This document shows, piece after piece, positions 25,020 to 63,169 of a stretch of DNA of 64,000 nt. The notes below the pieces were generated by a model that saw nothing but the letters and a program-made list of their open reading frames with translations, had not been told where the DNA came from and searched no databases. The DNA comes from Ochromonas danica (lineage: Eukaryota; Sar; Chrysophyceae; Chromulinales; Chromulinaceae): the NCBI GenBank assembly GCA_015146655.1, contig VKHL01000045.1, forward strand, positions 62,001 through 126,000, in the 5' to 3' direction. The position numbers were made by a program, and so were the translations under genes. The stretch's first letter is position 1. Every line of letters begins with the position of its first letter.

Positions 25020-26427
25020 ATGAGTAAAGCCCAACCTGTTACCGCCCAACCCATTATCATCTCCATTACGGATGCTCAACCGGTTCTTTCTGGAGTGGTT
25101 GCTGTTCCTGCTCCCAAGCAATATGCCGAGTAAGTGTCATCGACGCTCATTATGATAAAACCGTTTTGCTATTGATAGCTTACAGAGATTTTTCTTGGAT
25201 TGCTTAAATGACATGTTTTTAATTTCATTCAATCCAAATGTTGGGATATCCATGAAGTTCAATTTCTCCTGAACTGTGGGGAATTTTTGCCAGTCAGTCA
25301 ACTTTTACCATTCGTCAACACGTCAAGCTCCTTCCTAAAGCGTGCTGTGCTTGCCCTCCATGCGCTCCCCAGGAAAACACTTATAGCATCTATGCTGGTA
25401 TGTCCAAGGATGCTGAAGCGGAGTTTATGCGCCTTGACGAAGTGAGCGACGATTGGAACCGCTGCTGTTGCAAGCCTTACCATCCCCTTCGTTTGGAAGC
25501 TCGCCAATATATTCCTATCCCTGGAGATGGCACCAAAAGCGATTTTTCGCATCTGACCCAAGACTTTCAGAACGATTTCCGAGGTCTCACAGCGGGTCGC
25601 AAAGCTGAGCGTCTCAAGCAACTTTACACAAATCAGCCAGTGCTTTTCTCCGTTTTACGTAACGATGGAGAACGCTGTTGGTAAGTAACTCCAGTATTAT
25701 ATTCTTTTGTGTGTGCTCATGTTTTCTTCTCAGCTTCAAAATGCCATGCAAGTTGCTGAGCACTTTCGTGTGCTTCGGTTGCTGCCAAGATGGTGTTTCT
25801 ATCTATTCCGGAGCTTTGGTTGATCCTCCTGGTAAGGAGGCTGGCAGACCTTATGATCCTGATCCGTCTCGTTTGATTGGATCTGCCATTCAACCAAACT
25901 TTGGCGGATGTCTCACTCCAACTCTTCATTTGAGAGGTGGCGAGAGTGTCGGTGAGACTGCCGAGCCTTATGGAAAGATCGAAGGACCTTGCTGCTTTGG
26001 CGGTTGGTCTGAAATGTGTTGCAACTTCAACTTCCAGGTTTCCAGTTTCAATGGACCTGCCAAAGCGGGTGACCTGGGTTTGATTACCAAACGCAAGCCC
26101 GCTTCTCTTGCTGGCGCTTTCGTTGAGCTCGCTTCCGATGCTGATGTTTACACCATTCAGTAAGTGGTCACTGAAATACTGTTTAGAGGTTTTGTTTGGA
26201 ACTAATTTTGAGTATTTTTTACAAGGTTTAATGATAAAGCGGATCTCACGCCTTCCCAGAAGATCACCATCTTGGCTGGGCAAGTCCTTGCTGACTACAT
26301 GTTCTTCGATGGTAACACTGAGAAGTGCTCTCAAGATGACAATTTCGTGTATTGTTATTGCTGCTACTTCAGCTGCATTGGTGCGATCTGCCCAATTTAC
26401 ATCTGTATCCCAAAGAAATCCAACTAA
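25020..26427 (+). CDS. Phospholipid scramblase-family protein
   Basis: Four exons (25020-25129, 25258-25680, 25734-26159, 26226-26427) give 386 residues. The family moves phospholipids between bilayer leaflets in some members, but many are regulatory. Matches to scramblases are FTIRQHVKLLPKACC, the Cys-rich run NRCCCKPYHPLRLEAR, LFSVLRNDGERCCFK, the second Cys-rich strand in LLSTFVCFGCCQDGVSIYSG, KIEGPCCFGGWSEMCCNFNF and GDLGLITKRKP. The closing segment KITILAGQVLADYMFFDGN corresponds to the C-terminal hydrophobic helix of the family. Many Cys residues sit where palmitoylation is usual. The N-terminal 37 residues are a hydrophobic, Pro/Ala/Val-rich leader. The first intron uses a weak acceptor (CATGAAG); the others are standard, the second being only 53 bases. 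Substrate and location are unknown. Confidence 0.85.
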
Positions 26428-27138
26428 GATTCCGAAAAAGGAAACTCAAGCGTGTCCCTACTTAGTATGGAGACTGATTTGCGCTGTGGCCAATCATCAA
26501 ATAAATCAAATGAGGTATCTTCCATTATCTAACTATTTACTGTTGAACCAGGTTAATAGTTTTAAGAGTGCTTGACTGGATATCTGTAATACTTAATAGA
26601 AGTGACACTTCCTCACCACTATAACGATCACGCTATTCAATTTCCTCGCTGTCAGCAATTCTACTTATATTGTACCAGACTTGTTGCTGTTCTTGATCTC
26701 ATATTCTTCTCGCATTCTTCACAACGGACAAGGGAATTTTCCCTCAGTTCTAAGTTCGGTTTTCTTTTCTTTTCTTTTCTTCACCACAACCTCATTTTGA
26801 AGTGCAACTCTCCCTCTTCGGTGTTTATTCTCTTTCCCACCCGAGAAACTGCTTCTTTAACTTCAATTGCCGTGTTTCTCTCACTCCGTTTCTTCACTTC
26901 TGGCGACGTGTGGTGCAGTTGCAGACTTCACTTTCCCAGGTGCGTTGCTCTGAGGTCAGCACGGGGCAACGTCAGCGGCACTTTCACACCAAAGACTGAA
27001 GGATACCTTCTTCAGACATACGCGTCAGACAATCGTCAGCACTTTCTTCGGTTCCAACATTCGCCAGTGAACCATTCATAATCGAACTGTCTAATCATCT
27101 CGATCATCTCTCTCTTTTACTACAAAAAAAAATTAATT
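26428..27138 (+). promoter_or_regulatory. Upstream region of triosephosphate isomerase
   Basis: The 711 bases include the scramblase 3' end and the promoter of TPI. A tandem TTTTC tract lies at 26761-26785 and long pyrimidine stretches follow, as is common upstream of highly expressed genes. The start codon context is A-rich (AAAAAAAAATTAATTATGG). Open frames inside have no recognisable product. Confidence 0.4.
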
Positions 27139-27995
27139 ATGGCGTCCAAGAAGATTACTAAGGCTCTCATTGGTGGTAACTGGAAGAGCAACGGCACTGT
27201 CGCTTCAATTCGTCAAATGGCTGATGCTTTGAATAGAGCGGGTCATTTTAGCCCTAATTCCGAAGTTGTTATCGCCGCTCCTTCCATCCATCTTCCTCAA
27301 CTCAAGAACATGTTGAGATCCGATATTCACGTCAGCGCTGAGGTAAGGCAACTATTTATTTTCACCGTCAGAAAAATCCTAATTGTCACCTTTTTGGACA
27401 GGATGTGAGTTTCAAGAGAGGTTACGGCGCCTTTACCGGTGAATTGACCGCCGATATGCTTGCTGATGCGGGTATCACATGGACCCTCACTGGTCATAGC
27501 GAACGTCGTGTTGGATTTGGTTTCCCTGGAGAGACTTCCCAAGTTGTGGGTGTTAAGACCAAGAATGCTATCGATTGTGGCATGTCCGCTATTGCCTGCA
27601 TCGGCGAGCAGCTTGCCGATCGTCAAAGCGGCAGAACGATGGTTGTCTGCTCCGAGCAATTGGCTGCCATTAAGGCGGCTCTTCGTGAGGTGGATTGGAA
27701 GAAGGTTGTGATTGCTTATGAGCCTGTTTGGGCTATCGGCACTGGTGTGACTGCCACTCCTGAGCAGGCCCAGGAGACTCATGCTGAGATTCGCGCATGG
27801 ATCCGCAAGCACGTTTCAGAAACTGTGGCCAATGAGACTCGTATCATCTATGGTGGTTCAGCCACTGCTCAGAACTGCAATGACCTCTATGCTCAGCAGG
27901 ATATCAATGGTTTCTTGGTGGGTGGTGCCTCTCTGAAACCTGATTTTGTGGATATCATCAACTGTACTGCCCCTAAGGGTTGGGTGGCCAAGTAA
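27139..27995 (+). CDS. TPI1: Triosephosphate isomerase
   Basis: Two exons, 27139-27342 and 27402-27995, phase 0, 265 residues. TPI interconverts dihydroxyacetone phosphate and glyceraldehyde 3-phosphate in glycolysis and the Calvin cycle. Active-site elements are intact: Asn and Lys in GGNWKSNGT, the His in LTGHSERR, the Glu in IAYEPVWAIGTG with its mobile loop, and the phosphate-binding IIYGGSAT and FLVGGASL. Small oddities: the usual AQN motif after strand 3 reads AEDVSFKRGYGAFTGE, and ILGHSERR reads LTGHSERR. The length is about 15 residues over the family norm, partly at the C-terminus (TAPKGWVAK). There is no transit peptide, so a cytosolic form is most likely. Confidence 0.97.
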
Positions 27996-28353
27996 GTTGA
28001 AGGCGTCTTAATTGTTTGTTAGAATTTCTTTCTCTCTGCGAAAGAAGCAGTCGTAATGATACATTTGTAGATTGATTCCTGAAGCTCTTGTGCAGATTTA
28101 GACTTTTGATAGTTCCCGCTAACTCCCTTAATCCCACCACACTTTTGTCAGTCTTGTTATAATTAGTTGCTCTCGCACAACTTAGTTAATATCCCTGGGA
28201 ACAACAATGGAATAACAGGTTCTCCCATGACTGAAGTTCGGCAGAGATTTGGAGGGGCACCTGGAATTCTAGAGATTTGGAATTGTCCTGTTGTGGAACT
28301 CTGAAGGGTGTTTACTATTTTATCCACATGAGTTTTACGCCATTTTGTTTTGT
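27996..28353. other. Gap between TPI and the first copy of the tandem family
   Basis: Untranslated sequence of 358 bases; nothing distinctive seen. Confidence 0.3.
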
Positions 28354-29284
28354 ATGGAGAGTGAGTATTTATCTCGTGTCAGTTTGATGGAAGGTGGAAA
28401 TGTTTGCTGGGCTGTGGATACATTCACATCCACGCCGCACCACCCAATCTTCTCATCAGAACCTTCTGACCAGTTAATAAGAGGTCTGTCACTACTTCTG
28501 ATCATACCCAGTTCATACTCATATCTGTGCTGATGTTTTAGAGATTTTGCTGGGAATGAAAGAAGGTGAAGAGGAGACAGAGGAAGAGCATGAGGCAAAA
28601 AGTGTTGTAAATACTCAATCTTCCTCTCTTTCCTCCTCTACTACTGAAGAATCTATATTAGAAATTCGCAAAATTCGTAGGCGGGTCTATCGTCGAACTC
28701 ATTACCATCGTACTCATCCTTTCAGTCGAATCCCCAGTAATGACATACGCAAACAATTCCCTACACTCTGGCTGAATATCTTTCATCAATGTAATCCTCC
28801 CCTCTATGCCTCCTTCTTCAAACATCTCGCACATAAGCACATTATTATTGGCAGTACCGGGTGGAATCCTGGAAAAGATGGCCACGTAGCGACTTATATT
28901 CCTCATGTTTGCGTTGAATGCTCTTTAGCGAAGTTCCTTGCAAGTTATCTTCATCGTTGTGCTGTGAGTGTGGATATGATTTGTGAGCTACGTGGGAGTG
29001 AGATACGACGATCTCGTGTATCGAAAGGCACTGAGGTTGCTCTGAATCTACGAACTATTTACACCTCAGTTTATGAATTGGATTTTCCTGTAGATTGCAG
29101 CATCCTTGCCAATGATGTTTCTGATCTTATCCCTTATCGCAAGCTTTCACCGAAACCCATGAAGTTAGTGGTCGATTGTATTCTTTCATTTCACTTTGAA
29201 GAGAATGCAAAATTTATGGATCATTGTTGCCTTCATTTCAAGTCTATTAATTCCTATCCAATTGATTCCCGTGAACTTCGTTAG
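28354..29284 (+). CDS. Tandem unknown family, copy 1
   Basis: Two exons, 28354-28483 and 28542-29284, phase 1, 290 residues. I do not recognise the family, which occurs four times in tandem here. After a short N-terminus opening MESEYLSRVS comes an acidic, Ser-rich stretch (EGEEETEEEHE). An Arg-rich segment follows (KIRRRVYRRTHYHRTHPFSR), and then a conserved core of about 200 residues: RIPSNDIRKQFPTLWLNIFH, PPLYASFFKHLAHKH, GSTGWNPGKDGH, SYLHRCAVSVDMICELRGSE, RRSRVSKGTEVALNLR, ANDVSDLIPYRKLSPKPM and HFKSINSYPIDS. No signal peptide or membrane span. The basic segment next to an acidic one would suit a nuclear or nucleic-acid-binding protein, but this is a guess. The first intron has a weak GTCTGT donor; its place and phase agree with copies 2 and 4, and the MESE start agrees with copy 4. 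Confidence 0.65.
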
Positions 29285-30162
29285 TATTTGTTTTTTGTTG
29301 GTTGATATTTTCGTTCATTCGCTTGTGTGTGGTGGATGTGGTACACCAATTTGCTTGTCTTTTTGTATTTTCATCTAGCTGCTTCCTGCACATCAATTGC
29401 GCTTCGAACGCTGACTGCTCAACAGACCACTTGCTGTTCATCTATTCGACGGGGACGAATTGTTGCATTTATTTCCTCTGTCACTTTGTGGTTTTGTTCG
29501 TCGTAGCAGTATTTTTTTGCCGCAGCAACGATGATATGATACTGTCTGTATTTGAAAATTAGGTAATAGCAATGGAAGATGTGATGAAACAGTGTAGTAG
29601 ACTGTACCTAAATTGGATAATAGAAATTTGTTGGCAGAAGAACTGAGTTGGGCTACCGACAGTGCGATAAATTATGCTAGTACTACGTAGTATTAACACA
29701 ACCAAGCGTGAAAATATGGATTCCTAACTCAGTTCGTACTTCACCTCTGGGTGACGAAAATCGGACATCTTCTTGATTCTCTCAGCACTTTCGAATTCTC
29801 CCTTTGAGATATATTAGCTTGCTTCCTAACGAATGCAAAACCAACAAGAAGCAGTTGAAAACCCTAAATTGTTATGTAAATACGCAAGGTTTTAAACAAT
29901 TACTCAAGAATTTTTCGGGAAGTTTTAAGTTCCAGTGAGTCGATTAGTTTGTATTGTTCCTGGCTGTCCAGCTTGTAATAGAGCTGGTTGACCTATTGAT
30001 ACAAACTTGAGGATTGCGTTATAGCATTTGGGTCTGACAAATCAGCTTGGTTCTCAATACCTCCTGCGTTAACGTCTTGCTGGTAAATCATAAAAATTTC
30101 CCATCTGTTAACTCTCTTTCTTACCTTTTGGTTTTGTCTAGTTTCGTTTTATACTACTTATC
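29285..30162. other. Spacer between family copies 1 and 2
   Basis: The 878 bases hold the 3' end of copy 1 and the promoter of copy 2. An open frame at 29302-29562 is hydrophobic and Cys-rich in T-rich DNA with no resemblance to anything, so I do not call it. Confidence 0.4.
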
Positions 30163-31071
30163 ATGAGCGAAATATTAACTCTTGAATGCTCGTCTATTTC
30201 TTCCTCTTCTCTCTCATGCAACAATCTGTTCACCTTGGACCAGACTGAGAGCCTGATGCTAGGTATGCCAGTAAGAAATGACTACACTAGGCAAAATTTT
30301 TATTTGGTGTGTAATCAAATAGATTTCTTTCTAGCTATGAGTGAAGATGAAGTTGAGGAAGAAAAAGGGAAGGAAGGAGAGGCTGCGCGAAGTGACAATT
30401 CTCCTGCTTCTTCCAGTTCGTCTACCATAGACAACCTCAAAATAGAAGAGCGAAAAAAGCGCAAACGTGTCTATCGTCGAAATTATTATTTTCGCACTCA
30501 TCCCTTCAGTAGAATCCCCAGTTCTGATATTCGCAAAAAATTCCCTGCACTATGGATGAATATTTACCATCAATGTGATCCACCTCTCTATGCCTCCTTC
30601 ATCAAACATCTCGCGCACAAGCACATTGTAGTTGGCAGTACCGGGTGGAATATTGGAAAAGACAACCATATAACAACTTATCTTCCTCATATTTGTACGG
30701 AATGTCCATTCGATAAGTATCTAGCAAGTTATCTTCATCGTTGCGCCGTGAGTGTGGATATGATTTGCGAGCTACTTGGATGTGAGATACGACGATCTCG
30801 TGTGTCGAAAGGCACTGAGGTGGCTCTGAATCTGCGGAATGTTTATACGACCCTTTATGAGTTAGACTTTCCTGTGGATCGCAGCATCGTGGCGAATGAT
30901 GTTTGCGATCTTATCCCTTATCGTAAGCTTTCTTCCAAGCCTATGAGGGTGGTGACTGATGGTATCCTTGCATTTCACTTTGATGGTGTTACGAGTTCTG
31001 TCGATCGGGTGTGTCTTCATGTTAAATCGTTTTCTTGCTATCCTATTGACTCTATCAAGCAACTCTATTAA
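30163..31071 (+). CDS. Tandem unknown family, copy 2
   Basis: Exons 30163-30262 and 30323-31071 (phase 1) give 282 residues. The 60-base intron is a multiple of three and has no stop codon, so an unspliced message would encode a 302-residue form with 20 extra residues. The donor (GTATGCCAGTAAG) closely matches the copy 4 donor (GTATGTCAGTGAG), and both second exons open with the codons for DFF, so the intron is old in the family. The variable N-terminus is Ser-rich; an acidic run (EVEEEKGKEGEAA), a basic run (ERKKRKRVYRRNYYFRTHPF) and the shared core follow, with THLPxIC-like HICTECPFDKYLASYLHRCA and RRSRVSKGTEVALNLRNVYT. Function unknown. Confidence 0.8.
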   Translation: MSEILTLECSSISSSSLSCNNLFTLDQTESLMLGMPVRNDYTRQNFYLVCNQIDFFLAMSEDEVEEEKGKEGEAARSDNSPASSSSSTIDNLKIEERKKRKRVYRRNYYFRTHPFSRIPSSDIRKKFPALWMNIYHQCDPPLYASFIKHLAHKHIVVGSTGWNIGKDNHITTYLPHICTECPFDKYLASYLHRCAVSVDMICELLGCEIRRSRVSKGTEVALNLRNVYTTLYELDFPVDRSIVANDVCDLIPYRKLSSKPMRVVTDGILAFHFDGVTSSVDRVCLHVKSFSCYPIDSIKQLY

Positions 31072-31829
31072 AGTTGAGATCAAGCAATTTTAAGGACATG
31101 GTTGTTGTGCATATAACTTTGTCTAATTGCTTATGTTGATTCTGCGATCATTTTCATCTGAAGGAAGTTCATTTGCTCTTGTGATATGCTATATAGGCTC
31201 TTCGAGGAAGTAGCCGTGCTCGCGGTGATGATTGTTTGCTGTTGTTGTGTATGCTGCTGCTACATTTGCTCATGATAGCCTTTAGTGAGTATTTTTTTTC
31301 TTAGTGTGTCTTCTGTGTTTTGTATTGTTCTTCCCCGAACGTTGCTTTTAATTTCCTGACTTCTGCCGCGCGACAAACGATAAGTTCACGTGCTTAGTAT
31401 ATGTTTGTATCATTCGTATTTAGACGAGGCAATCCTTACCCGGGTTTTGTCACAGTTGCTGATATAATCTCCGCCGTGGGTCTCACTCTGAATAACGAAG
31501 GGCGTGTGCTGTCTTTTACAACCCAAAGGATGCGATATTGAGAGGCATCGATTTTGGCTGAGAGTAGAAGTAGTATTGACGCTCATCCACAAGTATCAAT
31601 GGCAAGTAATGTAATTAGTAGTATCTATTCACTCTCATCTTGCTTAATATGAATAACATGAGAGCTTAACGAAAGTACAATAAATTCGTAGAGACTGTTT
31701 AACTGCATTTCATTCAACAAATATCTACAAGAAGACTAATTCTTACACAATTTAACTTTGTAAGTTACATCTGTAGGTTACATAATTGAAGGATGGAAAA
31801 CTGTTCCGCGTGCAAGATGATTTTGTCCT
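31072..31829. other. Spacer between family copies 2 and 3
   Basis: The 758 bases contain a segment around 31370-31410 resembling the conserved 3' flank seen after copies 3 and 4 (AAGTTCACGTGCTTAGTAT compared with GAGTTCATATGCTTGGTAA). No further gene is seen. Confidence 0.4.
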
Positions 31830-32762
31830 ATGGGTGGCAAGTTGAATTTCTGTTTCCATGTGGAATCCAGCAGAGCGAGACAGAGAGAAACACACAAGAG
31901 GACGTATGTCCAGAAGACGAACAGCTCAGAACTAGAACTGTTTGCAAAATTAATGACTGCGTCTAATACCAGTGAACAGACTGACCTGTGGATACTTCAA
32001 CTTGACGAGTTGACTAGCTTTCTTCTGGTTAGGAAGGAAGACGAAGAGGAGGAAGAAGAGAAGGAAGGAGAACTCACAGGAAGCGACAATTCCCGTGGTT
32101 TCTCAAACTCATCTATAGTTGATGACCTCAAAGAAAAGAGAAAGAAACGCAATCGCCTTTATCGTCGAAATCATTACCTTCGCACTCATCCTTTCAGTCG
32201 AATCCCCAGTACTGACATACGCAAACAATTCCCTACACTCTGGATGAATATCTTTCATCAATGTGATCCACCTCTCTATGCCTCCTTCTTCAAACATCTC
32301 GCGCACAGACAAGTTGTCTTTAGAAGTAATGGATGGGATCCTAGACAAGACCGCACTATCGCAGCTTTTCTTCCTCATATTTGTAGAGAATGTAATATGG
32401 AGAAGTACCAGGAAAACTATTTGCATCGTTGTGCTGTGAGTGCAGATATGATTTATGAGCTACGTGGGAGTGAGATACGACGATCTCGTGTGTCGAAAGG
32501 CACTGAGGTTGCTCTGAATCTGCGGAATGTTTATACGACCCTTTATGAGTTGGGCCTTCCTGTGGATCACAGCATCATGGCGAATGATGTTTGCGATCTT
32601 ATCCCTTATCGTAAGCTTTCTTCCAAGCCTATGAGAGTGGTGACTGAATGCACGGTCTCCTTTCACTTTAATGATGATACTGGCTCTATTGACCAAGTGT
32701 GTATGCATGTCAAGTCATTTTCTTGCTATCCTATCGACCCTATGGAGGTCAAGCTTCATTAA
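31830..32762 (+). CDS. Tandem unknown family, copy 3
   Basis: Read as one exon of 310 residues from the ATG at 31830. The core is plainly that of its neighbours: RTHPFSRIPSTDIRKQFPTL, PPLYASFFKHLAHRQ, NYLHRCAVSADMIYELRGSE, RRSRVSKGTEVALNLRNVYT, ANDVCDLIPYRKLSSKPMRV. The N-terminal 70 residues differ completely from the other copies, and the position of the family intron is not evident, so the first exon may have been replaced or the true start may be a later Met (for example MTASNTSEQTDLW). An acidic run (KEDEEEEEEKEGEL) and a basic run (KRKKRNRLYRRNHYLRTHPF) are kept. The segment after the core's first third (VFRSNGWDPRQDRTIAAFLP) has drifted more than in copies 1 and 2. Confidence 0.7.
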   Translation: MGGKLNFCFHVESSRARQRETHKRTYVQKTNSSELELFAKLMTASNTSEQTDLWILQLDELTSFLLVRKEDEEEEEEKEGELTGSDNSRGFSNSSIVDDLKEKRKKRNRLYRRNHYLRTHPFSRIPSTDIRKQFPTLWMNIFHQCDPPLYASFFKHLAHRQVVFRSNGWDPRQDRTIAAFLPHICRECNMEKYQENYLHRCAVSADMIYELRGSEIRRSRVSKGTEVALNLRNVYTTLYELGLPVDHSIMANDVCDLIPYRKLSSKPMRVVTECTVSFHFNDDTGSIDQVCMHVKSFSCYPIDPMEVKLH

Positions 32763-33774
32763 TCACGTGAAATTTAGTCTGTGCTATTTCTGCTGTTAAG
32801 ATAGGCTTTTTGTTCCTTCGATGTCTTGCATATGCTATTCGAGATGCACACTAGACTTTCGTTATTATTTTAATGGGTGATGGTTGCTGACTCCATTTAC
32901 TCGAGTGTGCTGTTCATGGTTTTCTTAGTTGGTTCTAAGTTATTCATCTTCCAACTCTCGAAATGCGCTTTTTCCGACCGCCTCTATTGTTAGACAAGCA
33001 ATGAGTTCATATGCTTGGTAAAACTACCCCCTTTAGTTTTTTGAATGCCTTTCGCTGTTGATCCTGATTAAGTTTTGCGACCCCAATTGAGATTTGTTAA
33101 GAACGGCTCTTAGCGAATGTTCATGATTTGGTATATATTACCACTTGACGAATGCCAAGTGTAACCGTCCACCTACGCAGTTCAGTAATATGATATGGCA
33201 TACGCTATTTGAGAAAATGGTTGCAGCCATTGTTCGTTATTATTTCAATGGGTGATGGCTGCTGACTCCATTTAATCGACAGTGCTGTTCATGGTTTTAT
33301 TAGTTTTCCTCTTCTCGGTTCTACAGTATCTATCCTCGAACTCTCGAACTGTGCTTTTTCCGACTGCTTCTGTTGCTGGACAAGCGATGAGTTCATATGC
33401 TTGGTAAAACTACCCCCTTTAAGTTTTTGAATGCCGTTCTCTGTTGATCCTGATTAAGTTTTGCTATTCCAATTGAGATTTTCTAAGAAAAGGTTCTTGA
33501 AGGGTGATGCGATTTAGTAATAGTTGTAATCTTCGTGCTGAGTTGAAAAGTGAACTGATTCTGATTCTGTTGACTTAAACTTCGGTAGTATAGTATACAG
33601 TGTATAATTCTCCAACCTGACTCTTCTAAGTTAATAATAGACTTTATGACATCATCCATTGCATCGATACAACATTTTTCAGATGCTGGCACAGTACCAA
33701 ACGGCAAGAGGGCCAAACCTCCAAACCCAGACCCACCCAGCCTCCAAGCAATCCATTTCCAATGCGGTTAAAAT
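32763..33774. repeat. Spacer containing a directly duplicated 3' flank
   Basis: Two diverged direct repeats of about 270 bases lie at roughly 32840-33110 and 33205-33490. They share TGCTGACTCCATTTA, GTGCTGTTCATGGTTTT, GAGTTCATATGCTTGGTAAA and GTTGATCCTGATTAAGTTTTG. A weaker third version follows copy 4 (about 35160-35260). The pattern suggests that flank and gene were copied together, and that one extra unit may have lost its gene here. Confidence 0.7.
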
Positions 33775-34797
33775 ATGGAATCGGAATTCAATGAACTGTT
33801 AACGCGTTTTGAGGGTTCCCATCCCAGTGATTGGGTCAGGAAACTACATGCTGCCTTTCAACTACCCCATGATGCAAATCCCGATTTCCTGAAAGAAATT
33901 TTGTTGACTCGTGAATCTTCTGCTTCTTCCTCTTCTCTATCATCAGACAGTCCATTCACTTCACAACAGTCCGATGAAGGAATATTAGGTATGTCAGTGA
34001 GAAATGGTTTAATATTGTCCATTTGCTAATCATGAGCTAAATCTATTGTATGATGCGATTAAATAGATTTTTTCATAGATCTGAGAGAAGATGTATTTGA
34101 TGAGGAAGAAGAAGAGGGAGAGAAGAAAAGAGAGGGTGTTTCTCATCTTTCTTTCGATTCATCTACTACTATTGAAGAAGAGCGAAAGAAACGCAGGCGT
34201 ATTTATCGTCGAAGCCATTATCTGTGTAAACACCCTTTCAGTCGAATTCCCAGTACCGACATTCGCAGACAATTCCCTACAATCTGGATGAATGTGTTCC
34301 ACCAATGTAGTCCACCTCTCTATGCCTCGTTTATTAGATATTACGGACATAAACAACTTGTCTATGGCACTACTGGTTGGAATCCTGGAAAAGATGGTCA
34401 TATAACCACTTACCTTCCTCATATTCGTACAGAATACAAGACGGAGAAATATCTTGAAAGTTATCTACATCGTTGTGCCATGAGTGTAGATATGACTTAT
34501 GAGCTACGTGGATGTGAGATACGACGCTCTCGTGTATCGAAAGGCACTGAGGTGGCTCTGAATCTGCTAAATACTCATACAACCCTTTATGAGTTGGACC
34601 TTCCTGTGGATCACAAGATCGTGGCGAATGATGTTTGTGATCTTACACCTTATCGTAAGCTTTCTTCTAAGCCTATGAGGATAGTGACTGAGTGTGTTCT
34701 TGCACTCCATTTTGATGATGATGTGAGCTCTGTTGATCGGGTGTGTTTTCACGTTAGATCGTACACTTGCTATCCTGTTGACGTCCAGCAACTTTAA
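33775..34797 (+). CDS. Tandem unknown family, copy 4
   Basis: Exons 33775-33988 and 34067-34797, phase 1, give 314 residues, the longest of the four. The N-terminus is also the longest and looks ordered: MESEFNELLTRFEGSHPSDW and KLHAAFQLPHDANPDFLKEI, then a Ser-rich stretch. The intron contains stop codons, so it must be spliced. The second exon starts DFFIDLRED, continues with an acidic run and EEERKKRRRIYRRSHYL, and then the core. In this copy the segment corresponding to HICTEC reads HIRTEY and FKHLAHK reads IRYYGHK, so Cys and His positions kept elsewhere are lost. RRSRVSKGTEVALNL and PYRKLSSKPMR are unchanged. If a metal site exists in the family, this copy should lack it. Confidence 0.78.
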
Positions 34798-35899
34798 AGG
34801 CATGGTCCTTGTGCGTGGTACTTTGTCTATGCTGCTGGAATTTCTTTTATTTTGTTGTTGTCAATTCTGCTATCAAGACAATTCATTTACTACTATGAAA
34901 TATTACATACTGGTATTAAGACATGTCATTTACTCGCCTGAAACATTATGTTCTGGTATGAAGACAGTTCATCTACTCCCATGGAATATTGCGTTCCACT
35001 ATTACCGAGCTCTAGAAGTGATAAAAGTAGTGTATTCACGGTGGTGGCGATTGTTTGTATTTTTGTTTGCTGGGGCTGTGTTTTTGACTACATTTGCTGC
35101 TCTGTATAAACTAATGTATGTTGCACTGCATCATGTTCTTTTCTCCTCATCATAACGTTCCTTTTCCGACCAATAAGTTCATATGCTTGGTATAAATGCT
35201 TTTCGTTTACATGATCACCCCTAATTGTTTTGAATGCCATTCTCTGTTAGTTCTGTTGCTTCTTAATTGTTGTTCTCAATTCTTGTTGCGGTAGTGTGAT
35301 AAGAATGGCTATGACTTCATGAAGAAGTCCAATGAATGTGTTCCGCGAAGGAGGCACGAAGTCCTGTCTTTATTGCGGCTGGAAAGAAAAGCTAAAATCA
35401 AATCATGAAAGCGAACACTCATTCTGCCAAGTGAGCATTGCAGTACATTTCATAAAGTTGCTGATTCCTGCAACTTCGTATTTTTGTTTCCGATGTCTAT
35501 TGATTTCGTACAATAATTCAAAGTTAGCGAGGGCTGATGTTGAAAGCGAACTTGCTTTGCTTGTGCGAAGAGGATGGACTCAGGTCCGATTCTCCTAGAC
35601 TCAAGTCAAACGTTAATCCCGTGCTGCGTCTCAACCTTAGCAAGGTCTTTACTTTACTGTAGACTATTACTACCGTTACATAGTACTGTTGAACAACATG
35701 GGGTTGCTCAAAGCCTTGTAATAACAGATAATCAAGCGACATCGTACTGATGGCGAGAATTTAACTTACACTATATCAATCATGTCTTTAGAAAGGAAAT
35801 TTAGTGATATCTACAGTGTATCAGTAGCTATCACCTCGGAAAACTAACCATGTTGGTGCAATTTTTTAGATGATCGCATCCTCACTGATGCGGGAAGAG
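34798..35899. repeat. Long gap with a 43-44 base minisatellite
   Basis: Three imperfect units of 43-44 bases lie at about 34875-35000, each opening AAGACA and carrying TTCAT(T/C)TACT and TATT. A copy of the family 3' flank lies near 35160-35260. Open frames here are short, hydrophobic or unconvincing, and I call no gene in these 1100 bases. Confidence 0.5.
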
Positions 35900-38091
35900 T
35901 CAGTACCACTTGTTCAAGATGATCAGAATAACTGAGACATTGTCTCGAGAGTTTCTCTTACGAATTGCATCATGTGTGAGGTGCTAAAGCATTACAGAAA
36001 AAGAAGTACCTCACATCAGATAGAAGAAGTCATAAGAGACAGTAGATAATCAACTCACCTGGCAACATCGTTGTGTATCACCATGTTTCTCCATAGAAGA
36101 TTTGACAAAGGTGACCACTTCTTCGGGTGTGTAAACATCGAAGAGACCATCGCAAGCGAGTAACAGGAACTGATCATTGTCCCCAATAGTTACAGATTGA
36201 ATATCAGGCTCCGCAATGATCAAAGGTTGGTCCCAATTAGTCATGTCGGGGCCTCCGTTTTCATTGGTTGGAGGCAGACCTCCACTTTCTTGTTCAATAA
36301 TCGATTGAATGCCCTTCTTAAAATCAATGTCTCCAAAAGCTCGAGAGACTGCTAACTCTCCCATAACTCGATTGGAAATAACAAAGCCCCCTGCATCACG
36401 AATGCGCTTAGCCTCATCTTCTCTTGATGGCTTGTGATCTTGAGACAGTAAGACTGGCTCAAAATTTCTATGACATGACACGATAGGTAAGGCTAATGAG
36501 TATTTCTATATCATCGTTTTCGATATTTCATAACATACCTGCAAAGTAAAGTACGTGAATCACCAACATTTGCGCAATACAAACGCCGACCTATAACTAA
36601 CGCACTAGTAGCTGTTGATCCATGTTGAGGGGTAGGAGATGAAGTCAGGAAGTCTTGGTCAGTCTTAAGAAAGGAAGTCTTCAAAGCAGCCGTAATGAGT
36701 TTATCAAAAGCTTGCAACGCTTCTGGTGTTGAATCCTCATAAAGACTACGAGGAGCTATAGAATCAATTACTGCAAAGATATCATTAGAGATGTTCAGTA
36801 ACCCATGAGCAACATTGATGTGCAAATTCTGAGCAAGGTAATGACTTGCAGCAACCCCGCCATGTCCATCAAACACACCGAAAAAAGACTGCGGACAGAG
36901 ATCAGGAACACATAACGGGGCAATGTTCAAGTGTTGTACAATAGTACATGCATCCTCCATGGACTGACGATATCCCATCTCTTCCGATAAACCATAGTCA
37001 AAGCGGTTAATACTAAATCCAGTTCTACCAACAAGGATATGATCGTTCAAAGAAAGTTTGTATCTCCCACCATAAGGTCCTACAAGTTGAATATATGTTC
37101 CATTCGTAGAATTCATATCAGAAACAATGTATTTGCCACTTCTCTCATCAAAGTCAATACGGCTGTGTTTACGAGACAACTCGCGGTCAGGAACACAGAT
37201 CGTATTATCAGAAGATCTGCCAAACGTTGCCCCTTTCTTTGTGACTATTAAAGTTTGTCCTTTCAATGGACCTTCCAAAGATGATAATTCCAAGTTTCCA
37301 TCTCCATTTATCCCTTGAGAAAGGAAAATAGAATTACCCGCAGAGAATCGCGCACCTTTGTCTAATATCCACTTCTTGTGTGCTGTGCTACTTCCAATCC
37401 CAATGCGTACAGAAGCTGAAAAGCTGAACCCATTATCAACAATATAGAAAGAACCACGATGATATTCAATGAACGAATGAGCTTCATTCGAAAGTCTCTG
37501 GTCAGAGGGCACACAGATATCATTTGACTTATCTCGACCAATTTTAGCACCTTGACGACCTACAGTGAAGGAAGGTGTTTCTACACAACCTTCTGAAAGA
37601 GTAGTAAACTTCAACACAATATTCTTAAAGTTTCCTTCATAGCCATAGAATGAATGACGAGTAGAACGTTCTCCAGCCCCATGAGCTCTGGTAGCTTTCG
37701 AGGAAGAAGGTTTTGTATCATTCTGATCTGACTTCTTCTGACTTTCATATTCTTTAACAAAGGCTTCATAACGAGCAAGAAACTCTTCCTGTGTCAAATC
37801 TTTTGTATTAATCTTTTGGTGGCGAAGGAATTCAGCGATTAGATTGCCTCTTGAGAGAGTATCATCTGATCCTGCTGCTGGTTCTGCAAGAATAATAACA
37901 CAAAGATAAGACAAGACACGAGGAGACAGTTAGTTAGCTATTGTTTCACTGCATTCATTCATTCAGTTCATCTCACCTGTTCCATCTCTTTTCAAAGGAG
38001 CTTCTCGATCTTCTTTCTCCTCGTGATTTGAAGCACTTTTACTTTCCCCTTTACCAGGAGAAAGGTTTCCATTACCTGAATAGCCGCTCAT
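35900..38091 (-). CDS. PP2C protein phosphatase with two FHA domains
   Basis: Four exons (38091-37977, 37883-36539, 36467-36059, 35983-35900) give 650 residues. A metal-dependent Ser/Thr phosphatase carries phosphothreonine-binding domains. The first FHA (about residues 145-225) has KIGRDKSNDICVPSDQRLSN and a weakened end (VDNGFSFSASVRIG). The second (about 240-325) is classical: ATFGRSSDNTICVPDRELSR, KHSRI, YIVSDMNSTNGTY. PP2C follows: GYRQSMEDAC, FFGVFDGHGGVAASHYLA, CANVGDSRTLLCR completed across the second intron, DHKPSREDEAKRI, GELAVSRAFGD, LLLACDGLFDVYTPEEV and, in the last 27-residue exon, RNSRDNVSVIL. The metal-binding Asp residues are present. The last exon was found by its PP2C closing motif and fits in phase. 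FHA-PP2C fusions exist in plants (KAPP, with one FHA N-terminal); two tandem FHA domains before PP2C are less usual. Confidence 0.9.
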
Positions 38092-51623: not shown

Positions 51624-52670
51624 TTAAATAAAGACCACCACCTTGCCCAAGTTCTTTCCAGTGAATAAAGACTCGAAAGCCTCGGGCCAAGCTTGAAGAC
51701 CATGGAAGACAGTCTCTTGAGCACGAACCTTGTCTTCCTTTAACCAAGCAGACATATCATCAAGGAAATGTCCTTTATGACCCATAAGCCAATCCCAACA
51801 GAGGAAGCCCTCTATGCGTTGCTGGGTATAGATCATACCCATGGTGTTCACTTCATAGGTTGGGGTATCCTTCTTGTTGTATTCAGCAATCTGACCGCAA
51901 ATAGCAATGCGACCACGAGGACGTAACAGCTTCAGAGCTGCTTCGAAATGAATGCCTCCAACATTCTCAAAGTACATGTCAATGCCTTCAGGAGCCACTT
52001 CTCTCACCTTCGCGATTAGATCTTCAGCACTATGGACTCCCTTGTAGTCAATGCAATGGTCATAGCCATAGAAAGACTTCACAAAGGCACACTTCTCAGG
52101 ACCTCCAGCTGACCCAATCACCTTGCAGCCATACTTATGTTTAGCGATCATACCTGCCAGACCACCCACTGCACCTGAAGCAGCAGAGATAAAGATCGTC
52201 TCTCCTGGGTTAGGACGTAAGATGCCTTCTATACCACCATAGGCAGTTGATCCAGTTGAACCCAAGATGCCAAGTCCATACGAGATGTTAGAGTTATCGA
52301 CGTATCCCGTCAACCTCCAAACTCGAGTGCGCGCAAGCACCTCCGCGGTGACGATTTGTACGCTAACTACAGGCAAATTAGCACCAATGAAGTCACCTTC
52401 TACCCACGCGGGATTCTTGGAAGCTAACACGGTTCCAGCAGTATAGCAAGACATGGGATGGTCTGGTTTGATAAGACCTGTGCTCTTGATGGCTCCACGA
52501 AGATAAGGATCAGCAGACACTACAGAAAGATGCACTAGAATACTTCCCTCTGTGAGAGAAGCCTTGAGATCTTCAATGTTGACTTCTTTCTCTTCAATGC
52601 GAAAATGATGATTTTGAGGGATTCCTTCATCAACATGTTCTGCAAGAATCAAACTCTTTGAAAGAACCAT
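51624..52670 (-). CDS. MDR-family NADP-dependent reductase, tandem copy A
   Basis: A single exon of 348 residues. Zinc-free medium-chain reductase of the leukotriene B4 12-hydroxydehydrogenase / prostaglandin reductase / alkenal reductase type, which reduces activated C=C bonds with NADPH. Evidence: VSADPYLRGAIK, AGTVLASKNPAWVEGDFIGA, the nucleotide-binding loop in ETIFISAASGAVGGLAGMIA, GCKVIGSAGGPEKCAFVKSF, IDMYFENVGGIHFEAALKLL, RPRGRIAICGQIAEYN, RIEGFLCWDW and EAFESLFTGKNLGKVVV. No catalytic-zinc ligands are seen. Residues 1 to about 284 are identical to copies B and C; the last part differs at about a dozen positions (LMGHKGHFLDDMSAWLKEDK in place of LTGLKGNFHADMSAWFKEGK). The true substrate is unknown. 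Confidence 0.93.
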   Translation of the reverse strand: MVLSKSLILAEHVDEGIPQNHHFRIEEKEVNIEDLKASLTEGSILVHLSVVSADPYLRGAIKSTGLIKPDHPMSCYTAGTVLASKNPAWVEGDFIGANLPVVSVQIVTAEVLARTRVWRLTGYVDNSNISYGLGILGSTGSTAYGGIEGILRPNPGETIFISAASGAVGGLAGMIAKHKYGCKVIGSAGGPEKCAFVKSFYGYDHCIDYKGVHSAEDLIAKVREVAPEGIDMYFENVGGIHFEAALKLLRPRGRIAICGQIAEYNKKDTPTYEVNTMGMIYTQQRIEGFLCWDWLMGHKGHFLDDMSAWLKEDKVRAQETVFHGLQAWPEAFESLFTGKNLGKVVVFI

Positions 52671-53229
52671 TTTTGTTTTATTTTGATGTTTGTTCTTGAT
52701 AACTTTGTTGAGAATGGAAAGGATTTCAATTGTGTCTCCCTCTAGTGTCTTCTCTTGTCTTGTCTTCTACAGCAGACGAGAATTCTCTTGACCAATGCTC
52801 TGTGCTAGTGGAAGGATACAATCCACTTCTCCTTTCCACTTCTCATATGTCAGCTTCTTCCACCACTACATCACACAAACACACCTTCTTTCCACAGAAA
52901 AGCTGCTTTTCTGTTGTGTTTATTGATCGATGGGCCATTTAATTTCGATTTATGACATCATGCAGTTCGGAGTTGGATACGGATTTCAAGGCAAGATTTG
53001 CGCACCCTAAACTCTGCCAATCTTCAGACTCAGAAATAACGAAGTGAACCGCGCGAATGGCTTCGACTCATCTGGAGTCCATCTCGATTCTAAGAAGGAG
53101 ATTTAGTAAGAGGGTATGAACTAAACTTATTTACAATTAAAAATGTCACGGCACCAAGACAAGCTAACCTTGTCTAAGCAACCCTAAGTGGCCTACAAGT
53201 TACTCTGCCTATATTCACTTCAGTCTGTT
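52671..53229. repeat. Spacer A-B, part of the tandem MDR unit
   Basis: Bases from about 52905 to 53229 recur almost unchanged in the next spacer (about 54430-54746), including GATCGATGGGCCATTTAATT and ATGACATCATGCAGTTCGGA. The second spacer lacks a stretch of about 20 bases present here near 53025-53080. The sequence just upstream of the copy A start is shared with copy C more than with copy B. Confidence 0.75.
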
Positions 53230-54276
53230 TTAAACAAACACAACTACCTTGCCAAGGCTCTTTCCAGTGAATAAAGACTCGAAAGCCTCGGGCCAAGCTT
53301 GAAGACCATGGAAGACGGTCTCTTGAGCACGAACCTTGCCTTCCTTAAACCAAGCAGACATGTCTGCGTGGAAATTGCCTTTTAGTCCAGTCAGCCAATC
53401 CCAACAGAGGAAGCCCTCTATGCGTTGCTGAGTATAGATCATACCCATGGTGTTCACTTCATAGGTTGGGGTATCCTTCTTGTTGTATTCAGCAATCTGA
53501 CCGCAAATAGCAATGCGACCACGAGGACGTAACAGCTTCAGAGCTGCTTCGAAATGAATGCCTCCAACATTCTCAAAGTACATGTCAATGCCTTCAGGAG
53601 CCACTTCTCTCACCTTCGCGATTAGATCTTCAGCACTATGGACTCCCTTGTAGTCAATGCAATGGTCATAGCCATAGAAAGACTTCACAAAGGCACACTT
53701 CTCAGGACCTCCAGCTGACCCAATCACCTTGCAGCCATACTTATGTTTAGCGATCATACCTGCCAGACCACCCACTGCACCTGAAGCAGCAGAGATAAAG
53801 ATCGTCTCTCCTGGGTTAGGACGTAAGATGCCTTCTATACCACCATAGGCAGTTGATCCAGTTGAACCCAAGATGCCAAGTCCATACGAGATGTTAGAGT
53901 TATCGACGTATCCCGTCAACCTCCAAACTCGAGTGCGCGCAAGCACCTCCGCGGTGACGATTTGTACGCTAACTACAGGCAAATTAGCACCAATGAAGTC
54001 ACCTTCTACCCACGCGGGATTCTTGGAAGCTAACACGGTTCCAGCAGTATAGCAAGACATGGGATGGTCTGGTTTGATAAGACCTGTGCTCTTGATGGCT
54101 CCACGAAGATAAGGATCAGCAGACACTACAGAAAGATGCACTAGAATACTTCCCTCTGTGAGAGAAGCCTTGAGATCTTCAATGTTGACTTCTTTCTCTT
54201 CAATGCGAAAATGATGATTTTGAGGGATTCCTTCATCAACATGTTCTGCAAGAATCAAACTCTTTGAAAGAACCAT
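53230..54276 (-). CDS. MDR-family NADP-dependent reductase, tandem copy B
   Basis: Single exon, 348 residues, protein identical to copy C over its whole length and to copy A over the first 284 or so. The 3' flanks of B and C are also the same to the eye for at least 100 bases. The 5' flank of B has lost about 30 bases kept in A and C. The function is as for copy A. Extra gene copies with identical products suggest a dosage benefit or a very recent event. Confidence 0.93.
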   Translation of the reverse strand: MVLSKSLILAEHVDEGIPQNHHFRIEEKEVNIEDLKASLTEGSILVHLSVVSADPYLRGAIKSTGLIKPDHPMSCYTAGTVLASKNPAWVEGDFIGANLPVVSVQIVTAEVLARTRVWRLTGYVDNSNISYGLGILGSTGSTAYGGIEGILRPNPGETIFISAASGAVGGLAGMIAKHKYGCKVIGSAGGPEKCAFVKSFYGYDHCIDYKGVHSAEDLIAKVREVAPEGIDMYFENVGGIHFEAALKLLRPRGRIAICGQIAEYNKKDTPTYEVNTMGMIYTQQRIEGFLCWDWLTGLKGNFHADMSAWFKEGKVRAQETVFHGLQAWPEAFESLFTGKSLGKVVVFV

Positions 54277-54746
54277 TTTTGTTTTATTTTGATGTTTGTT
54301 CTTGATAATGGAAAAGGTTTCACTCTAGGATCTTTTAGAATCCTCTTGCCCAATGTTGATCGAGTCGGATCCTGTTCTTATGTCAACTCGTTTGGTTTTG
54401 CGTGATGTAGTGGTGGAAGATGTTGCTTTTCCATAGAAAAGCTGCTTTTCTGATGTGTTTATTGATCGATGGGCCATTTAATTTCGATTTATGACATCAT
54501 GCAGTTCGGAGTTGGATACGGATTTCAAGGCAAGATTTGCGCACCCTAAACTCTGCCAATCTTCGAAATAACGAAGTGAACCGTGCGAACGGAGTCCATC
54601 TCGATTCTAAGAAGGAGATTTAGTAAGAGGGTATGAACTAAACTTATTTACAATTAAAAATGTCACGGCACCAAGACAAGCTAACCTTGTCTAAGCAACC
54701 CTAAGTGGCCTACAAGTTACTCTGCCTATATTCACTTCAGTCTGTT
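54277..54746. repeat. Spacer B-C, part of the tandem MDR unit
   Basis: Repeats the A-B spacer from about 54430 onward. The first 150 bases (downstream of the copy B start, unique part) differ, showing where one duplication joint may lie. Confidence 0.7.
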
Positions 54747-55793
54747 TTAAACAAACACAACTACCTTGCCAAGGCTCTTTCCAGTGAATAAAGACTCGAA
54801 AGCCTCGGGCCAAGCTTGAAGACCATGGAAGACGGTCTCTTGAGCACGAACCTTGCCTTCCTTAAACCAAGCAGACATGTCTGCGTGGAAATTGCCTTTT
54901 AGTCCAGTCAGCCAATCCCAACAGAGGAAGCCCTCTATGCGTTGCTGAGTATAGATCATACCCATGGTGTTCACTTCATAGGTTGGGGTATCCTTCTTGT
55001 TGTATTCAGCAATCTGACCGCAAATAGCAATGCGACCACGAGGACGTAACAGCTTCAGAGCTGCTTCGAAATGAATGCCTCCAACATTCTCAAAGTACAT
55101 GTCAATGCCTTCAGGAGCCACTTCTCTCACCTTCGCGATTAGATCTTCAGCACTATGGACTCCCTTGTAGTCAATGCAATGGTCATAGCCATAGAAAGAC
55201 TTCACAAAGGCACACTTCTCAGGACCTCCAGCTGACCCAATCACCTTGCAGCCATACTTATGTTTAGCGATCATACCTGCCAGACCACCCACTGCACCTG
55301 AAGCAGCAGAGATAAAGATCGTCTCTCCTGGGTTAGGACGTAAGATGCCTTCTATACCACCATAGGCAGTTGATCCAGTTGAACCCAAGATGCCAAGTCC
55401 ATACGAGATGTTAGAGTTATCGACGTATCCCGTCAACCTCCAAACTCGAGTGCGCGCAAGCACCTCCGCGGTGACGATTTGTACGCTAACTACAGGCAAA
55501 TTAGCACCAATGAAGTCACCTTCTACCCACGCGGGATTCTTGGAAGCTAACACGGTTCCAGCAGTATAGCAAGACATGGGATGGTCTGGTTTGATAAGAC
55601 CTGTGCTCTTGATGGCTCCACGAAGATAAGGATCAGCAGACACTACAGAAAGATGCACTAGAATACTTCCCTCTGTGAGAGAAGCCTTGAGATCTTCAAT
55701 GTTGACTTCTTTCTCTTCAATGCGAAAATGATGATTTTGAGGGATTCCTTCATCAACATGTTCTGCAAGAATCAAACTCTTTGAAAGAACCAT
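54747..55793 (-). CDS. MDR-family NADP-dependent reductase, tandem copy C
   Basis: Single exon, 348 residues, the same product as copy B. Its 5' flank (ATAACTTTGTTGAGAATGGA and on) matches copy A better than copy B, while its 3' part matches copy B and not A, so C is a mosaic of the two. It is head-to-head with the WW/UBA gene, 378 bases away. Confidence 0.93.
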   Translation of the reverse strand: MVLSKSLILAEHVDEGIPQNHHFRIEEKEVNIEDLKASLTEGSILVHLSVVSADPYLRGAIKSTGLIKPDHPMSCYTAGTVLASKNPAWVEGDFIGANLPVVSVQIVTAEVLARTRVWRLTGYVDNSNISYGLGILGSTGSTAYGGIEGILRPNPGETIFISAASGAVGGLAGMIAKHKYGCKVIGSAGGPEKCAFVKSFYGYDHCIDYKGVHSAEDLIAKVREVAPEGIDMYFENVGGIHFEAALKLLRPRGRIAICGQIAEYNKKDTPTYEVNTMGMIYTQQRIEGFLCWDWLTGLKGNFHADMSAWFKEGKVRAQETVFHGLQAWPEAFESLFTGKSLGKVVVFV

Positions 55794-61473: not shown

Positions 61474-63169
61474 CTATCTTCTGCCTGGCAAGAGTCTCCA
61501 TGCTCCTTCTAGTACTTCTGTTCTCACTAAGACATCCCCTGCTTGTAATTGTTGTAGGGCATCAATACCTTCCACAGCATAGGCAAAGAGAGAAAACCTG
61601 TTATTTAGTCTCTGAATAGCTGGCAGTGCATGTAATTGACCCACACGATATTGAGCACGATCAGCGGGCAGAAAGAAGAAAGCACCCGATGCTCCATTAC
61701 CATCCCCGAGCTCATGGTGCATCCCAATAGCTCCATACTAAAACAAAGAACATGTACAGTAAAGAGGTCAAGATTAGCCAACCATTCAGAATAATGATTG
61801 TGATAACAGCTCCTACCGTGGCAAAGGAAAAGACAGGACGAGCACGAGTAAAGAAAGCAGTGTTTCTTGCTGCACCAAATGCTGTAGATCGACGTCTACT
61901 CTCTTCTTCTTCTCCTTTTTCACCTTGCGGTTCTTCTCGATAGATCTCTAATGGAACTCTTCTTTCCTTTTTCGTTAAAGGATCAAGATATCCACTCGTG
62001 ATATCACCTAACAGAGTGAGATTAGCTTGTTCTTGTCTTTTGAATACCAATGCTTGAGCATGTACAGGATGATTATCAAAGAAATCTTTTTGACATAGAT
62101 CAATGAAATGGCCTGCTGTATAAGGATGATGGATACCATCTACTACTAAAGTCACCTCTGTAGTATGTCCACCAGCAGGCGTAGATCTTGGAGGATCCAT
62201 GAGAGGTAAATTAAACCCACTACCAGATGATGGGGAAGTCAGTGATAAAGACTTAAAGCTTCCACCATTTATCTTTTGCAAGACTAACTTAACTTTAGCT
62301 CGTCCAACTAATCGTGGTAATCCTTCAAGTTCTTTAAGAAAATCATCATCTCGATGTAATGGATCAACTGGGAGAATAAGATCATCCTCTTGATAAGGTA
62401 ATTGATAATAAGCTACATCAGCTAAACTAGTTAAACTATTAGACATGGCTTCTAAGCTTTCTTTCAAGAGACATTGTCTAGATACATTGACTAAAGTTAG
62501 TAAATGTAATTGTAATTGTTCTAGTGAATGTTCAGCATATTGAAATCGTAAAGCTTGCATTTCAGAACTTTCATTTCTTAAGAAAATAGGTCTTAATTTG
62601 TCTTCATTATATAAACACATTCCTGTTGCACGTTGTGCATTAACCTGTAAATTTTGCCATAATGCAGAAGTATTGGATGCTAATTGTTTTCGTTGTTGTG
62701 GAGAAGGTTTCACTAATTGAATAAAGCTCTCAATAAAACCTTGTAATTGTCCAATTAACTTATTTTCTAAAGGTAATGAATTCAGTAATGCGGATTGTGG
62801 AAGTAATGGTGTGGTGTCATAGAGGGACTGCATGGGGGCATAAGCGGATTCAGCAGCTTCATATCCAACAGCACCATTCTTGGTCTCTCGTAGAATAAAA
62901 CCAGAGGAGGAAGAAGGAGATGACATAAGAATAGAGGTTGTCCATAGCGAGCCAAGAAATAATTGTCGCAGAAGTTGTTGTTGTTGTTGTTTGCTAGTAT
63001 AGGCTTGCAAACTTTGTGGAGAGGAAGAATCATCATTTGATGTTGATGATGATGGGATTGATCCTCTAGGAGTTATTGAAAGAGAATGAGTTAATCTTTT
63101 GTTGTATGGAAAATGGTTTATCCATCCATTGGATAGGAAAGTTAGAGAAAGAAATAAAATCAATTTCAT
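61474..63169 (-). CDS. CYP38: CYP38/TLP40-like thylakoid cyclophilin
   Basis: Two exons, 63169-61817 and 61737-61474, phase 0, give 538 residues. It resembles plant CYP38 (TLP40), a thylakoid-lumen protein needed for photosystem II assembly. The N-terminus is a signal-like leader (MKLILFLSLTFLSNGW) followed by a Ser-rich stretch and a second hydrophobic patch (LRQLFLGSLWTTSILMSSP), consistent with ER, plastid and thylakoid targeting. A helical domain (about residues 95-270) precedes a cyclophilin-type domain: GRAKVKLVLQ, VTLVVDGIHHPYTAGHFIDL, CQKDFFDNHPVHAQALVFKR, LGDITSGYLDPLTKKERRVP, then in exon 2 YGAIGMHHELGDGNGASGAF, FFLPADR, RFSLFAYAVEGIDALQQLQA, GDVLV. Usual catalytic residues (R..F.MIQGGD) are replaced, as in CYP38, so isomerase activity is doubtful. 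Confidence 0.85.

What the first reader, a model, noticed from the sequence alone, without database searches (positions are those of the whole stretch)
28354..34797. Unrecognised four-copy tandem gene family
Four neighbouring plus-strand genes share a core of about 200 residues that I cannot place. It opens with an Arg/Lys-rich block running into THPFSRIPS-DIRK-FP-LW, and has a central SYLHRCAVSVDM-ELRG-EIRR and the almost invariant RRSRVSKGTEVALNL and PYRKLSSKPMR. N-termini are acidic, Ser-rich and differ greatly. A conserved core with fast-changing ends suggests a fixed biochemical role with changing partners or regulation. A basic-plus-acidic layout could suit a nuclear regulator, but no known DNA-binding motif is seen.
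Basis: partly seen in the sequence, partly recalled or inferred. Interest (0 to 1): 0.85.

Follow-up and report, generated by a model that had tools for sequence, protein, structure and literature searches.

The report
Orphan four-copy algal gene family
Four neighbouring, intact gene copies in an alga-like eukaryote encode a protein whose shared core matched no family we could search; the copies look functional, but what they do remains a guess.

Summary
Four plus-strand genes at 28354-34797 share a core of about 200 residues (62-73% identical). Three of the four models (g1, g2, g4) have a GT-AG intron in phase 1 at the same place. The core is under purifying selection (mean dN/dS 0.27, bootstrap interval 0.20-0.36), so these are working paralogues. 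The acidic tails change faster, but no measurable pair exceeds a ratio of 1. No convincing match in Pfam, NCBIfam, PHROGs or PDB sequences, and no relative in viral or prokaryote contigs. No eukaryote collection was available, so 'unrecognised' is shown only for these libraries. AlphaFold2 failed (pLDDT 44 and 33). An NTF2/SnoaL-like fold is my leading guess, but profile comparisons did not beat shuffled controls. Best reading: a tandemly duplicated, probably nuclear regulator with acidic tail, basic block and alpha+beta partner-binding core; the function is inferred. Gene conversion between copies is hinted at, not proven.

The parts
28354..29284 (+). g1: exon 28354-28483, phase-1 intron 28484-28541, exon 28542-29284; core from 28670
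30163..31071 (+). g2: exon 30163-30262, phase-1 in-frame intron 30263-30334, exon 30335-31071; core from 30454; may lack part of its 5' end, since its start lines up with a point past the middle of exon 1 of g4
31830..32762 (+). g3: one open frame, true 5' end unsettled; core from 32142
33775..34797 (+). g4: exon 33775-33988, phase-1 intron 33989-34078, exon 34079-34797; core from 34186
32858..33489 (.). non-coding repeat of about 250 bases in two copies (32858-33110 and 33233-33489) between g3 and g4, with a 25-base piece after g4 at 35171-35195: possible trace of unequal exchange

Best explanation
Shown: a tandem array of four intact paralogues, made by local duplication of a two-exon gene and held by purifying selection on the core. 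Inferred: each protein has an acidic Ser-rich tail, a strongly basic block that serves nuclear import and possibly nucleic-acid contact, and a C-terminal alpha+beta core that binds a partner or dimerises, plausibly with an NTF2/cystatin-like fold. The copies would share the core activity and differ in tail-mediated regulation or in expression: a lineage-restricted nuclear regulator.
For: Core dN/dS 0.23-0.34 in six pairs and mean 0.27, interval 0.20-0.36; shared phase-1 intron in three models; N-terminal pI 4.1-4.4 in three models, basic block pI 11.7-12.0, core pI 9.2-9.3; import-like clusters in g2, g3, g4. Precedents for NTF2-like modules in regulators: LDB dimerisation domain (PMC6800368, passages) and sigma factors with SnoaL_2 (PMC7730460, passages).
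Against: No known DNA-binding domain was hit. g1 lacks a K-[KR]-x-[KR] cluster in exon 2. Both structure models are poor and Foldseek gave nothing at E 0.001. NTF2-like profiles were matched equally well by 6-43 of 100 shuffles, and the DUF4440 match fell on the wrong end of that profile. Expression, localisation and binding are untested.
Confidence: 0.4

Rival explanations
1. The core is an NTF2/SnoaL-like ligand-binding or enzyme domain and the basic block only a targeting signal; the paralogues act on related small molecules.
For: The same weak fold hints as above.
Against: No profile support beyond shuffles and no Pfam row of that clan at any E up to 10; the very basic start is unusual for such enzymes (general knowledge).
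Confidence: 0.15
2. A basic RNA-binding or ribosome/nucleolus-associated protein, structural rather than regulatory.
For: Core pI 9.2-9.3 and basic block pI 11.7-12.0.
Against: No RNA-binding family hit; such proteins are seldom tandemly diversified with acidic tails (general knowledge).
Confidence: 0.15
3. A gene captured from a virus or mobile element and then duplicated in tandem.
For: Orphan arrays sometimes arise so (general knowledge); nothing direct.
Against: No relative in four scans of viral contigs, which rest on short peptide patterns; best PHROG rows only 0.005; no inverted repeat of 40 bases or more at 26000-37000; a shared intron.
Confidence: 0.08

Closest known systems
NTF2-like superfamily (SnoaL, SnoaL_2, SnoaL_3, SnoaL_4, DUF4440)
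   Same: Order of helices then strands in the low-confidence model, and a shared first-half register in 4 of 6 profile alignments, one of them a pool that is not independent.
   Different: No significant sequence or profile match, an extra stretch of about 33 residues where my comparison would put a strand turn, and a basic N-terminal block.
LDB1/Chip dimerisation domain (a nuclear NTF2-like module)
   Same: Precedent for such a fold working in nuclear complexes (passages of PMC6800368); entry 6tyd, LDB1 with SSBP2, is among the weak Foldseek rows.
   Different: That row has E 1.9 and TM 0.12, which is no evidence of kinship, and I did not check which molecule chain V is.
Sigma factors with a C-terminal SnoaL_2 domain (ECF41, ECF56)
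   Same: Precedent for an NTF2-like domain modulating a DNA-binding part (passages of PMC7730460).
   Different: Bacterial, and no sigma domain was found here; likeness of design only.

Membership tests
NTF2-like superfamily | sequence or profile match to a member family | tested here: not met
   No Pfam row of that clan up to E 10; hhalign probability at most 0.71% with the core and 0.80% with the loop-deleted core, 6-43 of 100 shuffles as good. Power is limited by a four-sequence query.
NTF2-like superfamily | cone-shaped alpha+beta fold | tested here: inconclusive
DNA-binding transcription factor of a known class | a recognised DNA-binding domain | tested here: not met
   No Pfam DNA-binding family for the ORFs, the cores or the typed variants.
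Nuclear regulator (what it works like) | nuclear localisation and an effect on gene expression | not testable with these tools
   Only import-like basic clusters in exon 2 of 3 of 4 genes.
Tandem array of functional paralogues | intact frames, shared gene structure, purifying selection | tested here: met
   the g3 start is unsettled.

The most novel reading that the evidence does not exclude
A lineage-specific class of eukaryotic nuclear regulator in which a basic helix is fused to an NTF2-like dimerisation core with an extra loop, expanded by tandem duplication: an uncatalogued transcription-factor type of algae.
Probability: 0.15. Interest if true: 0.6.

Novelty: new member of a known kind. 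Interest (0 to 1): 0.35.

Why it matters
Orphan families kept under selection and duplicated in tandem show where a lineage invents its own proteins. If the core proves to be a new nucleic-acid-binding or dimerisation module, lists of algal regulators built from known domains would be missing it. At present it is a clean candidate, not a discovery.

Tried and rejected
Decaying copies: rejected; core dN/dS is 0.27 (interval 0.20-0.36) and the frames are intact.

Motif invariance as a product of gene conversion: a scan of all third positions suggested exchange (g2-g3 codons 110-159, 4% against 32%, permutation P 0.000 of 1000; g1-g3 codons 7-36, 3% against 40%, P 0.002). A stricter scan on codons with invariant amino acid kept only g1-g3 codons 7-41 (1 of 30 against 33 of 100 variable, 32 of 2000 permutations, not corrected for the pairs tried); g2-g3 fell to 257 of 2000, and the coldest block across all four genes was not unusual (1161 of 2000). 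In the 17-codon invariant block 1-3 of about 15 silent sites differ per pair. Conversion is hinted at, not shown.

NTF2-like membership: not established. One search read minus-strand loci in the wrong orientation and is superseded. In one search, 1 of 7 SnoaL loci (L152) and 2 of 20 Glyoxalase loci (L185, L201) were skipped, and one Glyoxalase locus with an internal stop (L197) was left out beforehand; match positions in L150-L203 were taken as base 1501 to 1500 from the end, checked only by frame and stops. The 18 positive controls include two pairs of equal scores that come from the same places (L089/L166, L084/L169). Decoy sequences tested singly were the first 10 of each of four families, 40 of 88.

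Relatives elsewhere: none in viral contigs or genome contigs; these scans use short peptide patterns and miss distant relatives. Taken as chance: PHROG rows at 0.005 (2 of 4 members) and 0.0052 (4 of 4), NCBIfam Hsp18 at 0.03 in one member, Pfam rows from 0.16 up. PADLOC was not searched.

Literature: the exact motif strings are in no held paper. Searches on NTF2-like proteins, stramenopiles and algal regulators listed no description of this family that I could see in titles and abstract starts; I read passages of two papers only.

Full report
Observation. The window holds four plus-strand genes in tandem between a triosephosphate isomerase gene and, on the other strand, a PP2C-type phosphatase gene. 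Their core repeats lie in register with spacings of 1784, 1688 and 2044 bases. The cores align over about 200 residues with 126 to 148 identities of 203-204 in the six pairs. EIRRSRVSKGTEVALNL is identical in all four.

Gene models. g1 (28354-29284), g2 (30163-31071) and g4 (33775-34797) give open frames with one GT-AG intron each, all in phase 1 just before the acidic stretch. The g2 intron is 72 bases and stop-free, so ORF callers read through it. The ends of the g2 and g4 introns and the sequence next to them are still alignable. For g3 (31830-32762 as an ORF) the acceptor that looks homologous is out of frame, and the 5' end is open. The g2 start lines up with a point past the middle of exon 1 of g4, so g2 may be incomplete at its 5' end too. 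No fifth copy was found in the window. A non-coding repeat between g3 and g4, with a 25-base piece after g4, may be a trace of unequal exchange.

Selection. Nei-Gojobori dN/dS in the core is 0.23-0.34 in the six pairs; the mean is 0.27 with a bootstrap interval of 0.20-0.36. In the N-terminal 40 columns of exon 2, pN is 0.17-0.41 against 0.14-0.20 in the core; dN/dS could be computed in four of six pairs (0.10, 0.29, 0.53, 0.73), silent sites being saturated in the other two. The tails change faster, but no computable ratio is above 1. A first scan suggested gene conversion; conditioning on codons with invariant amino acid left only g1-g3 codons 7-41 (32 of 2000 permutations, uncorrected).

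Identity. Searches of ORFs, cores and a core profile in Pfam, NCBIfam, PHROGs and PDB sequences gave nothing convincing; the best PHROG rows reach 0.005 without known function. Four viral scans and one prokaryote scan found no relative. No eukaryote collection was available and no genome is held for the window, so orphan status is relative to these libraries. Elsewhere in the window are a CYP38-like protein (3rfy, chloroplastic CYP38, E 5.8e-6; 7a73, E 1.3e-7) and a CFAP58 protein (E 3.1e-60).

Fold. AlphaFold2 on the four sequences gave pLDDT 43.9 and pTM 0.36 for g2 exon 2, and 33.2 and 0.23 for the g4 core. Foldseek returned 172 PDB and 283 viral matches at E 10 or less and none at 0.001. 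Of the 50 PDB rows listed, six are cystatins (1tij, 6fk0), LinA (3a76, 3s5c), a bile-acid dehydratase (4leh) and an LDB1 complex (6tyd), all with TM 0.12-0.14 to the query; kinesins, botulinum haemagglutinin chains and tRNA synthetases are as frequent, so this is a lead only. That these six share the cystatin/NTF2-like fold is recalled, except for LDB1.

Test of the lead. I built profiles of SnoaL_2 (29 loci), DUF4440 (20), SnoaL (6 of 7), SnoaL_4 (7), SnoaL_3 (9), a pool of 63, and decoys 4HBT (30), GNAT (30), ABM (11), Glyoxalase (17 of 20). The core reached hhalign probabilities of at most 0.71%; 6-43 of 100 column shuffles scored as well against the NTF2-like profiles and 20-92 against the decoys. 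Four of the six NTF2-like alignments start in the same first-half register (core 26-34 on profile 17-30), which agrees with the register I expected; the DUF4440 alignment does not. Against the SnoaL_2 profile, 17 of 18 single true members scored above the core, and so did 5 of 40 decoy sequences.

Mechanism. Shown: duplication, shared gene structure, purifying selection, acidic tail and basic block. Inferred: nuclear entry through the basic block (clusters in g2, g3, g4, not g1), partner binding by the core, and divergence of regulation through the tail. Precedents for NTF2-like modules in regulators are the LDB dimerisation domain (PMC6800368, passages) and bacterial sigma factors with SnoaL_2 (PMC7730460, passages). 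They show that such a design works, not that this is one.

Verdict. A real, apparently functional, unplaced tandem family.

Noticed in passing
51624-55793, minus strand: Three tandem zinc-dehydrogenase-like genes; two have identical coding sequence (0 of 1047 differences) and the third differs from each at 24 of 1047 positions: very recent duplication or conversion, or an assembly effect.
   Followed up: partly
32858-33489: Two copies of a non-coding repeat of about 250 bases, 84% identical, between g3 and g4; a 25-base piece recurs at 35171-35195.
   Followed up: partly
61712-63169, minus strand: CYP38-like protein with a signal-like start, resembling a chloroplast family, in a window that also codes for CFAP58 at 1-1812: points to a flagellated plastid-bearing eukaryote.
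   Followed up: partly
34802-35155, plus strand: A 117-residue hydrophobic ORF directly after g4 without a Pfam match; it may be chance.
   Followed up: no
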